NCBI GenBank assembly: GCA_026770585.1
Contig: MU646978.1
Location: forward strand, 41,027-65,524
DNA: 24,498 nucleotides
Direction: 5' to 3'
Source of the DNA: Baffinella frigidus
Lineage: Eukaryota > Cryptophyceae > Cryptomonadales > Baffinellaceae
Both the position numbers and the translations under genes were made by a program. The stretch's first letter is position 1. Each line of letters opens with the position of its first letter. Shown here piece by piece: positions 1 through 21,700 of the stretch. A model generated the notes under the pieces. That model was given only the letters and a program-made list of their open reading frames with translations. It was not told the origin of the DNA and made no database searches.

Positions 1-97
1 GGGTTTCGGGTTTCGGGTTTCGGGTTTCGGGTTTCGGGTTTCGGGTTTCGGGTTTCGGGTTTCGGGTTTTGGGTTTCGGGTTTCGGGTTTCGGGTTG
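1..97. repeat. TTTCGGG array
   Basis: Fourteen near-perfect 7-base units of a telomere-like variant (C replacing A of TTTAGGG), with one TTTTGGG unit. It ends directly against a decayed copy of exon 14. It is an interstitial, locally homogenised array rather than evidence of a chromosome end, because gene sequence must continue to the left. Confidence 0.95.
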
Positions 98-146
98 AAC
101 CTGAGCTTCGGAGGAGCACGTCTGGAGGCCACGACCGAACGTGAGA
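97..146 (-). pseudogene. Decayed copy of ALDH exon 14 3' end
   Basis: The minus strand reads ...LQTCSSEAQ then GTTGAACCC, matching the end and donor of exon 14 (655-700). Substitutions and a small deletion lie in the middle. It sits in the downstream intron. Confidence 0.75.
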
Positions 147-18700: not shown

Positions 18701-21700
18701 CACACATCGATTTCATCCGTTAAATGCTCGGCGGAGTTCCCCACACAACAAAAATTACTACACAAGCGATAAAACAGTCGTGTCCAGAAGATCATGTGCA
18801 GTAATTTTCGTACATTCGGGGAACTCCCGAGCATTTAATTTAAATACCTGACCGGATGAGATTGTTTATCACGGATAGAAAATCAGATTAAATGCACCTC
18901 GAGGTGCCACTTCGATTTCGTCTCCCCATCAATTCGCCCCCCCCCCCCAATTATCAGGCCAATTTCATAGGCCCCCCCCCAAAAAAAATTATCGGGTGAA
19001 TTTTGACCCCCCCCCCTATGAAATTGACCTGAGAAACGGGGGGGGGGGCGAATTGATGGGAAGACGAAATCGAGGTGGGACAGAGGTAGATTTCGGGCTG
19101 TGCCTCCCTGCGGACTATCGCGGCGCAACCCTAAACCCTAAACCCTAAACCCTAAACCCTACACCCTAAACCCTCAACCCTAAACCCTACACCCTAAACC
19201 CTAAACCCTAAACCCTAAACCCGCGAGTGAGGATCAGCTTCCCACCTCTGCTCTGAGAAAAGAATTTATTAAAAGTATTAAGAGGAAACCAATCAAAACC
19301 GCGCTCACCATAAAAGGGGTTTAGTCGCCCTGTTGTACCTGACTTTCTTCTCGAAAAGTGTTAGAAGGCCCACAACCGTCTCGGTGTCATTTTGAAGTCG
19401 TCGTCTCAGGCAGAGCTGGCATGTAGGGTGTAGGGTGTAGGGTGTGGGGTGTGAGTGTAGGGTGTAGGGTGTAGGGTGTGAGTGTAGGGTGTGGGGGTAG
19501 GGTGCAGGCTGTGGGGTGAAAAAGAGAGCAATCTGGTCCGGGGGAACCTCGAGGCAGGCCGTTTCGGGTTGCGCCTCCCTGAGGACTATCAGCTCTCTAC
19601 CTCTGCCTAACTAAAACCCAGCTCGCTATAAAACACATTTAACGAAGGGAATCCAGTACAAAAACGCACCTAAAACTGTTTTAACGGCGCGCCCGGTTTT
19701 ATTCAAGGGCCACCTCGAGACAGGCCATTTCGGGTTGCGCCTCCCTGAGGACTATCAGCTCTCTACCTCTGCCTAACTAAAACCCAGCTCGCTATAAAAC
19801 ACATTTAACTCTCTACCTCTGCCTAACTAAAACCCAGCTCGCTATAAAACACATTTAACGAAGGGAATCCAGTACAAAAACGCACCTAAAACTGTTTTAA
19901 CGGCGCGCCCGGTTTTATTTAAGGGCCACCTCGAGACGGGCCATTTCGGGTTGCGCCTCCCTGAGGACTGTCGCAGCGCGAGAGAGGACCAGCGACCGCT
20001 GCGTCCCTGTCAGCTGCGCCCAGTGCCCAAACGCCTCCTGATGTTGCGCGCGTGTTAGACACACCCGTTGAGTTTCATACACACACCCCCGAGTGTTTTT
20101 AGACACACTTGCGCGGGTGTTGGACACCCCCCGCACGAGTGTCAGACACACCTGCACGTGTCAGGCACACTCAAACCCAGCGACCGCTGCGTGCCTGTCA
20201 GCTGCGCCCAGTGCCCAAACGCCTCCTGCGTAGGCACGTGCACGAGTGTTAGACACACCCTGCAAGAGAGTCAGGCACATGTGTACAAGTGTTAGACACA
20301 CCGTGTGCAGGTGTTAGACACCCCCCGCACGAGTGTTAGACACACCTGCACGTGTCAGACACACTCAAACCCAGCGGTCGTGCCTGTCAGCTGCGCCCAG
20401 TGCCCAAACGCCTCCTGCCGTTGACTGATGCGAGCTACTCCCACACGGTGGACTACGGAACTTTCAACAAAAGTCAACTTGCCCAGAGATAATTAACGTT
20501 CAGGATTTTCTGGTGTAAATTTGGTCACGTAACACCCCAGAATCCGGCCCCAAATTCAAATCCGAAACCCTCGAAGCGCACCGAGTGGGTAGTCCCATCG
20601 TCGTACTTGGGAGAGCTACATGTCATTTTACGTCCTGCGTCCTATTATGTTCCCTTGAAATCGGCAAAAGTTGAGAGGTGGTCCTAATCCTGCCACTAAG
20701 AAACGGACAGCGTTTGTACCAGGACGAGGACGAGACCGCGGACGAGATAAGAAACGGGCTCGCCTCGGAAACGTGACCAGCCTTTTAGTGGGAGCGCGGT
20801 CTTCTCGTCCTCGGTCTCCTCCGCGGTCTCGTCCTCGTCCTGGTACAAACCCTGTCCGTTTCTTAAGGCTCGTACACTTTTGTATCACTCAACTCAAGGC
20901 TCAAGGGCCTCATTTAGGACCTGCATCGAGAGTAATACAGAAGAAGAAGAAGAAACGCTGTCCGGGTTAGTCAACCGTGACAGCGCCGCCCAGGGCCGAA
21001 ACGACTCCTGATGCTGGCGCGTGTGAGCTGCTCCTAACTCTGCCTCAGGCCACACAGAGGGCTACGAAGGGATTTTCAGGCACTCAGTGCCCGAGTTTCC
21101 GTTATCTTATCCGTAGGAACCCCCCTATGGCCCTACCGTTTGCCTACCGTAGGTCTTATCTCTAAAGGGTTGTTCGAAACCCCTTCAAAGTCCCCAGGGG
21201 CGAGACGCCTCCTGATGCTCAGGAGCGTGTGAGCTTGAAGAGAGGGAGCCAGCAAGAGAGAGTGCGCACTGCGCCCCTGTGTTTAGGGTTCAGAGGGGAG
21301 AGGAAGTAGGGGTTTGGGTGCCCACGCCAGAGTGTTCGAGGAGTCAAAGAGAGTGCGCACTGCGCCCCTGGGGCTGCGCGGTCTGGCCGGAGGCTCCTCT
21401 GCGAGCCACCTGCGTCGAGCGAGGAGCCGTCGGGAGAATTCAGTCAACTCCCTCTGTTGACTTTAGGCGTTGCCTGATAAAGTCCCAAGGGGCGAAACGC
21501 CTCCTGATGCTGGCGTGTGAGCTTGAAGGGAGGGAGCCCGCCCTTACGGTTGATAGGCTCAACGGTCCTTAACAAATACATCATATGGAGCCCTCTGGCA
21601 CACGCGGTGTAAGTAGTAGTTGATCACGTTTCAAGAGGCTGAGGGGCCTCTCGAGTATCATCGAGGTCCTTTCTGAGGGTAATCAAGAAGAAAGAAGAAG

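What the first reader, a model, noticed from the sequence alone, without database searches (positions are those of the whole stretch)
97..21512. Exon ends are copied outward into the adjoining introns with consistent polarity
For exons 3, 4, 5, 6, 7, 9, 11, 12, 13 and 14, decayed copies of the exon 3' end plus donor lie in the downstream intron. For exons 3, 4, 5, 7, 10 and 12, copies of the acceptor plus 5' end lie in the upstream intron. This is what results if segments spanning a splice site are tandemly duplicated and the innermost splice site stays in use: the protein is unchanged while the intron grows. It suggests intron expansion by boundary-spanning duplication, which I do not know as a described general process in this kind of genome.
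Basis: partly seen in the sequence, partly recalled or inferred. Interest (0 to 1): 0.9.

Follow-up and report, generated by a model that had tools for sequence, protein, structure and literature searches.

The report
Exon-end copies fossilised in neighbouring introns
In the genome of a single-celled alga, short stretches of DNA keep being copied beside themselves, and where a copy crosses the edge of an exon it leaves a decaying fossil of that edge in the intron, so the introns hold a readable record of how they grew.

Summary
Confirmed, and it holds beyond this gene. The window carries a betaine-aldehyde-dehydrogenase-like gene (minus strand) of a 382-Mb genome whose nearest named proteins are cryptophyte. 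I modelled 14 exons. All 35 copies are on the gene's strand; the reversed window gives none. Across 47 exons of 15 genes, 32 have such copies; 85 of 88 same-strand copies obey the polarity, against 138 of 273 for non-exonic segments.

It need not be aimed at boundaries: non-exonic DNA shows the same duplications with the same step (median about 200 bp), and the polarity is what selection lets through; an excess at exon edges remains partly unexplained. Repair-mediated local duplication including splice sites is known in vertebrates (PMC2671141), with partial exon/intron donors in 4 of 824. New here is the intensity: about 41% of this gene's intron DNA lies between an exon and its outermost copy.

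The parts
22974..23060 (-). Exon 1 (3' part; 5' border not modelled), no edge copies found
   Evidence: tblastn with P0001, donor GTAAAC
22863..22914 (-). Exon 2, no edge copies found
19930..20037 (-). Exon 3
20177..20225 (-). copy of exon 3 5' end (bases 1-49, 98%) in upstream intron
20379..20414 (-). copy of exon 3 5' end (1-36, 97%)
20975..21027 (-). older copy of exon 3 5' end with acceptor side (81%); related repeats at 21187-21253 and 21479-21541
19714..19756 (-). copy of exon 3 3' end (66-108, 95%) inside a 164-bp direct repeat at 98% that includes intron
19548..19590 (-). copy of exon 3 3' end (91%)
19090..19126 (-). older copy of exon 3 bases 59-95 (86%)
16982..17084 (-). Exon 4 (innermost unit of the array)
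17184..17236 (-). copy of exon 4 5' end with acceptor and intron (period about 152 bp)
17346..17388 (-). second copy of exon 4 5' end
16786..16850 (-). copy of exon 4 3' end plus donor (91%)
16171..16211 (-). older copy of exon 4 3' end plus donor (73%)
14965..15056 (-). Exon 5
15247..15299 (-). copy of exon 5 5' end (92%)
14465..14512 (-). copy of exon 5 3' end (88%)
14844..14864 (-). short copy of exon 5 3' end plus GT
13591..13612 (-). short copy of exon 5 3' end plus GT
12003..12146 (-). Exon 6
11809..11871 (-). copy of exon 6 bases 73-135 of 144 (89%), ended by a hairpin element
10890..10949 (-). Exon 7
11003..11048 (-). two short copies of exon 7 5' end
10746..10776 (-). copy of exon 7 3' end plus donor
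8328..8459 (-). Exon 8
8737..8773 (-). interior piece of exon 8 in upstream intron (exception: no splice site)
10956..10975 (-). interior 20-mer of exon 8 just 5' of exon 7 (exception: non-adjacent intron)
8023..8067 (-). Exon 9
7776..7797 (-). copy of exon 9 3' end plus donor and intron
6670..6763 (-). Exon 10
7486..7546 (-). copy of exon 10 bases 1-66 (85%)
7642..7665 (-). copy of exon 10 5' end with CAG acceptor
5490..5551 (-). Exon 11
4849..5082 (-). four copies of exon 11 3' end, followed by donor-like and telomere-like sequence (5056-5082, 5008-5032, 4904-4930, 4849-4873)
3742..3833 (-). Exon 12
3922..3961 (-). copy of exon 12 5' end with acceptor
3107..3155 (-). copy of exon 12 3' end within a 226-bp direct repeat (98.7%)
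3570..3633 (-). older copy of exon 12 3' end (77%); sister copy at 2934-2998
2635..2690 (-). Exon 13
2421..2462 (-). copy of exon 13, bases 10-51 of 56 (83%)
2203..2238 (-). copy of exon 13 3' end plus donor (89%)
655..714 (-). Exon 14
101..135 (-). copy of exon 14 3' end plus donor and telomere-like repeat (81%)

Best explanation
The genome undergoes frequent local direct duplication of segments stepped by roughly 100-275 bp (median about 200 bp), at exons and elsewhere alike. Inside a gene most duplications that reach into an exon are lost, except those crossing exactly one splice site. There the exon-proximal donor or acceptor stays in use, the extra exon edge is spliced out, and the protein is unchanged. 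Each such event adds its unit to the intron; repeats push older copies outward, where they decay and receive hairpin elements and telomere-like repeats. SHOWN: direct orientation, locality, inclusion of the splice site in most copies, polarity, a range of ages, occurrence in many genes, the same step size for non-exonic segments. INFERRED: that the mutational step is DNA break or replication repair (synthesis-dependent strand annealing, or fill-in of staggered breaks), that selection alone makes the polarity, and that this is a main source of intron length.
For: 35/35 same-strand copies in the window, none in the reversed control; second ALDH gene 15 hits, 14 same-strand, none in its reversed control. 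47 exons of 15 genes: 32 with copies; UP-5' 44, UP-3' 2, DOWN-5' 1, DOWN-3' 41, opposite strand 1. Size-matched non-exonic segments of the same loci: 125/374 with copies, UP-5' 63, UP-3' 72, DOWN-5' 63, DOWN-3' 75, opposite 66 (Fisher for polarity 1.7e-17, copies not independent; 30 of 32 exons wholly concordant, p=2.5e-7). Copies include intron sequence beyond the splice site, so they come from DNA and not from mRNA. Among copies of 30 nt or more on 20 edges the nearer copy is the more similar in 31 pairs against 9, and the nearest is the best match on 14 of 20 edges (9.0 expected). Steps of exonic and non-exonic copies agree. Local direct-duplication clusters per 10 kb: window 8.7, seven other loci 4.2-10.1. 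9,025 of 21,777 intron bases lie between an exon and its outermost copy.
Against: Exons have copies more often than control segments (32/47 against 125/374, p=8e-6), and relocation nulls expect 1.7 of 36 (window) and 1.3 of 21 (C240) first-order pairs to touch an exon where 25 and 9 do. Constraint on the exon makes such pairs visible for longer, and intron flanks can erode faster (E3 5': exonic part 98%, alignment with flanks 69%), but I did not show that this explains the whole excess. Loci 'without a gene' rest on Pfam scans that can miss short exons. A generic tandem array would also give 'nearer is more similar'. Five interior pieces do not carry a splice site on the expected side (exons 8, 10, 12). 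No relative was available to polarise events; splicing is inferred from homology and GT/AG only.
Confidence: 0.8

Rival explanations
1. Duplication is targeted to exon/intron boundaries (for example by breaks at R-loops, nucleosome edges or the transcription and splicing machinery), beyond what general local duplication gives. This could hold in addition to the best explanation.
For: Excess over relocation nulls in two genes (25 against 1.7, 9 against 1.3) and over control segments (68% against 33%); in the window the pairs at >=90% identity also touch exons more than expected (12 of 18 first-order pairs, null 0.7).
Against: Same density of clusters in other loci and same step distribution; exon-anchored pairs stay detectable longer; several pairs belong to one array, so counts are not independent; in C240 at >=90% identity the excess is small (2 of 8, null 0.4); control segments near exons differ only two-fold.
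Confidence: 0.2
2. Hairpin/MITE insertions with long target-site duplications produce the copies (an introner-like process).
For: Many hairpin elements; some copies are ended by one (exon 6 copy, arm ending at 11813); a small hairpin recurs in exon-4 units and in the C240 gene; introners with TSDs and TIRs are known (PMC9860276, passage seen).
Against: Spacers between an exon and its first copy contain hairpins no more often than random segments (stem >=10: 8/40 against 50/400, p=0.22; stem >=14: 2/40 against 16/400). The detector is simple and scored only 10 for the exon-4 units with a visible hairpin, so this is a weak test. Recent exon 3 and exon 4 arrays are near-contiguous tandem units. 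Exonic copies show one orientation.
Confidence: 0.08
3. Intron creation by tandem duplication of an AGGT-containing exon segment, so that the shards are birth scars of introns.
For: Same polarity is predicted; published model (PMC4974935, PMC2891723).
Against: Copies carry pre-existing intron sequence beyond the splice site (58-177 nt in the longest cases) and occur in series of up to five per edge, so those introns existed before.
Confidence: 0.05
4. Assembly artefact or mutually exclusive exons.
For: Assembly quality unknown; the window has an N run at 10002-10326.
Against: Copies differ from their exons by up to 27%, lie in different flanks, and none of 88 covers 0.9 or more of an exon core; seen on many contigs.
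Confidence: 0.03

Closest known systems
Repair-mediated duplication (RD) of proximal DNA in vertebrates (Pace et al. 2009, PMC2671141; abstract and two result sections read)
   Same: Closely linked local duplications up to 619 bp, germline, including intron splice sites; ascribed to synthesis-dependent strand annealing at breaks.
   Different: There 824 in the human genome, 4 with a partial exon/intron donor, and at least one exon copy in opposite orientation. Here 32 of 47 exons sampled carry edge copies, often in series, 88 of 89 in one orientation.
Small tandem duplication at staggered breaks (PMC8355091, 2021; passages read)
   Same: Direct tandem duplication at break ends as a route of genome growth.
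   Different: Concerns short (<100 bp) insertions and not introns; here the median step is about 200 bp. Enzymes not tested.
[quoted passage not shown] Gao and Lynch 2009 known from citations only, not held)
   Same: Tandem duplication of exonic DNA absorbed by splicing without change of protein.
   Different: Makes new introns; here existing introns are lengthened.
Introner elements (PMC9860276, PMC7789003; passages read)
   Same: Large-scale change of intron content in protists; inverted-repeat elements in introns.
   Different: Copies here are of the gene's own exon edges, not of a dispersed family.

Membership tests
Repair-mediated local duplication (RD/SDSA) | Donor and copy close together (<5 kb) | tested here: met
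   Scan reach 1.4 kb by design; offset quartiles 195/253/500 bp over 88 copies; whole-window scan found one piece in a non-adjacent intron and the rest in the adjacent one
Repair-mediated local duplication (RD/SDSA) | DNA-level copy, not a processed mRNA | tested here: met
   Intron sequence included in many copies; poly(A) tracts not scored
Repair-mediated local duplication (RD/SDSA) | Microhomology, filler or small deletion at breakpoints | not tested
   Needs the empty site in a relative; none available
[quoted passage not shown]
   In the clearest cases the duplicated units include pre-existing intron
Introner elements | Same sequence family in many introns, inserted with TSD/TIR | tested here: not met
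   Exon-edge copies match their own exon: 3 hits in 44 kb of other loci, all in a paralogue; TSDs not tested against an empty site
Tandem or mutually exclusive exon duplication | Copy keeps both splice sites and the whole exon | tested here: not met
   0 of 88 copies cover 0.9 or more of an exon core

The most novel reading that the evidence does not exclude
In this cryptophyte lineage local direct duplication with a characteristic step of about 150-250 bp is the main engine of intron growth: introns lengthen at exon edges by a conveyor in which the newest exon-edge copy sits next to the exon and older ones are pushed outward. The step could reflect a nucleosome- or Okazaki-fragment-sized unit of break or replication repair (that comparison is recalled, not tested), and exon edges may be preferred sites.
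Probability: 0.3. Interest if true: 0.8.

Novelty: new variant of a known kind. Interest (0 to 1): 0.62.

Why it matters
How introns grow long is usually put down to transposons. Here conserved exon edges act as labelled tags, so each duplication can be recognised, ordered and roughly dated, which makes the mutational source of intron length directly testable in one genome.

Tried and rejected
Long target-site duplication by hairpin elements: no enrichment in a weak test. Selection on the shards: no formal test; mismatches were exon 12 2 of 49 exonic and 1 of 177 intronic, exon 4 5 of 43 and 9 of 87, exon 14 6 of 35 and 8 of 53 (gaps aside), so no sign that shards are kept. Missing C-terminal exons as a sign of a truncated gene: dropped, because contig stretches 20001-30000 and 31027-41026 read all N and 30001-31026 was not fetched. 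DNA control: of its 15 loci nine are all N, so the true control is 44,377 bases, not the 150,000 printed there. The same kind of control (C240 exons against the window) gave 2 hits, between paralogous exons. First control of non-exonic segments was not masked for short repeats and is replaced; its segments were 56 of 96 with copies. Pfam scans of L026, L024 and L010 found one clear gene, LSM in L010, with one short intron and no edge copies; DUF3915 in L024 (26.7 bits) lies just under its cut-off of 26.9. A C25 ALDH-like gene, three approximate exons with short introns, has no edge copies.

Rows dropped and choices: C240 exons c and d are cut by N runs and left out of the 47 (in one search c gave three upstream hits, d one downstream hit); exon g gave the one opposite-strand hit and is kept. 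Genes are counted by contig. All 10 CCT places were used; of 45 kinesin and 17 HSP70 places I took 12 and 2. C506 and C112 (4 of 24 cores) were picked because the table already showed doubled matches; the second match at each was treated as a copy, not as a core. Without them 11 of 20 cores have copies and 30 of 30 copies obey polarity (rows). Four cores contain a stop in frame (C94a, C138a, C123b, C23) and may be partly intron or shard. One search, unmasked, scored one C506 copy (exon bases 15-105 of 123) against polarity. The 9,025-base figure includes the interior exon-8 piece.

That intron growth by such copies is not in print rests only on the listings, of which one search showed 15 of 672 papers and 15 of 77.

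Full report
What the window is. The window is the end of contig C654 of a 382,457,362-base genome in 1364 contigs. On the minus strand it carries a betaine-aldehyde-dehydrogenase-like ALDH gene. The closest protein is P0001, 65% identical and unnamed; the nearest named ones are from cryptophytes, Guillardia theta (51%) and an entry 'Tamp' (54%) that I read from recall as Teleaulax. An HSP70 of the same genome is 90% identical to one of Guillardia theta and 89% to one of Hanusia phi. I take the genome to be a cryptophyte; the species is not known. With P0001 as guide I modelled 14 exons from 23060 down to 655. The last part of the protein was not found, but much of the next contig stretch reads N, so this means nothing.

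The observation. Each exon was compared with the whole window. Thirty-five further places match, all on the gene's strand, none on the other; the reversed window gives none. Pieces that reach the 5' border of an exon lie in its upstream intron in 10 of 10 cases, pieces that reach the 3' border lie in its downstream intron in 16 of 16, and 9 are interior pieces. Alignments show that copies often run through the splice site into intron sequence. Ages vary: from 73% identity (exon 4, 16171-16211) to a 226-bp direct repeat at 98.7% (exon 12). Five rows do not fit neatly: two interior pieces of exon 8, one of them in a non-adjacent intron just 5' of exon 7; two interior pieces of exon 10 upstream; and an interior piece of exon 12 downstream.

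Is it only this gene? A second ALDH gene on contig C240 gave 15 extra hits for 11 exons, 14 of them on the gene's strand; the reversed sequence gave none. I then took 24 exon cores defined by Pfam matches in 13 CCT, kinesin and HSP70 loci. With short repeats masked and a reach of 1.4 kb, 15 of 24 of these, 12 of 14 window exons and 5 of 9 C240 exons have a same-strand copy: 32 of 47 in all. The copies are 44 upstream from the 5' half, 2 upstream from the 3' half, 1 downstream from the 5' half, 41 downstream from the 3' half, and 1 on the opposite strand. Size-matched non-exonic segments of the same loci, some of which contain shards, show same-strand copies in 125 of 374 cases with no polarity (63, 72, 63, 75) and 66 opposite-strand copies. 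Of 32 exons with copies 30 are wholly concordant (p=2.5e-7). Two genes with short introns, an LSM gene and a C25 ALDH-like gene, have no copies. Four of the 24 cores were chosen because they already looked doubled; without them it is 11 of 20 cores and 30 of 30 copies (rows).

What makes the pattern. The copies are direct, near (offset quartiles 195, 253 and 500 bp) and partial (largest share of an exon core 0.75 of 88). Where an edge has several copies of 30 nt or more, the nearer is the more similar in 31 pairs against 9. This fits repeated local duplication with outward displacement; an ordinary tandem array would also show it. The step is the same for exon edges and for non-exonic segments: median first offset 206 (47 edges) against 204 (177), KS p=0.17. 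Clusters of local direct duplication per 10 kb number 8.7 in the window and 4.2 to 10.1 in seven other loci, including L024 and L026, where no Pfam match passed its cut-off; such scans can miss short exons. The simplest reading is one genome-wide duplication process seen through a filter. A duplication inside an exon, or of a whole exon, changes the protein; one that crosses a single splice site does not, as long as the exon-proximal site is used. That filter alone gives both the orientation and the polarity.

Is the boundary a hot spot? By random relocation of duplicated segments, 1.7 of 36 first-order pairs in the window and 1.3 of 21 in C240 should touch an exon; 25 and 9 do. Using longer units raises the expected share from 5% to 8-9%, which does not remove the excess. 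But pairs anchored in a conserved exon remain recognisable longer, several pairs belong to one array, and the control-segment comparison shows only a two-fold difference (68% against 33%). I leave boundary preference as a rival at 0.2.

How much intron it explains. In the window 9,025 of 21,777 intron bases lie between an exon and its outermost edge copy. This is a measure of reach, not of duplicated bases, since hairpin elements and telomere-like repeats fill part of it.

Known relatives. Pace et al. 2009 (PMC2671141; abstract and two result sections read) describe 824 closely linked repair-mediated duplications in the human genome, up to 619 bp, including intron splice sites, with 4 donors of partial exon/intron type. 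PMC8355091 (passages) gives an enzymatic route for short tandem duplications at staggered breaks. Tandem duplication as a route to new introns is published (PMC4974935 and PMC2891723, passages). None of the passages I saw describes exon-edge shards as a general record of intron growth, and the listings of ten paper searches show none by title or abstract start; the library holds only openly licensed papers. A paper on cryptophyte genomes notes that repeats often make up more than half of such genomes (PMC12220804, passages). I therefore call it a new variant of a known kind: same sort of event, far greater density, and a visible consequence for gene structure.

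Noticed in passing
window 758-921, 9665-9830, 12543-12706, 15660-15827, 16429-16570, 18111-18274, 21049-21193: A dispersed hairpin family with ends like CCACACAGCG...CGCTGTGTGG (ends read by eye) recurs at least seven times in both orientations, some copies beside exon-edge copies.
   Followed up: partly
window 2998-3052, 16704-16764, 16917-16969, 17111-17173, 17263-17313, 17414-17475, 22000-22045; also in the C240 gene: A small AAGTTGAC...GTCAACTT hairpin lies in several of the units that carry exon-edge copies, and a like sequence is seen by eye in the C240 gene. 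General hairpin enrichment in spacers was not found.
   Followed up: partly
window introns next to exons 1, 2, 6, 8, 9, 11, 13, 14: Telomere-like (CCCTAAA)n sequence often abuts the splice sites directly.
   Followed up: no
window 11637-11813: A hairpin that ends the exon-6 copy has in each arm a 15-mer matching the exon 6 end plus donor at 13 positions by eye; an inverted copy of the edge is possible but may be chance.
   Followed up: no
window 14926-14990: By eye, the exon 5 donor lies in an imperfect palindrome: the first 20 intron bases resemble the reverse complement of the exon end.
   Followed up: no
window 3274-3425, 9850-10001, 13721-13810: A dispersed segment at 96-100% identity, one copy running into the N run at 10002-10326.
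   Followed up: no
L010 5053-5454 (minus): An LSM gene on the same contig with one short intron (about 165 bp) and no edge copies.
   Followed up: yes
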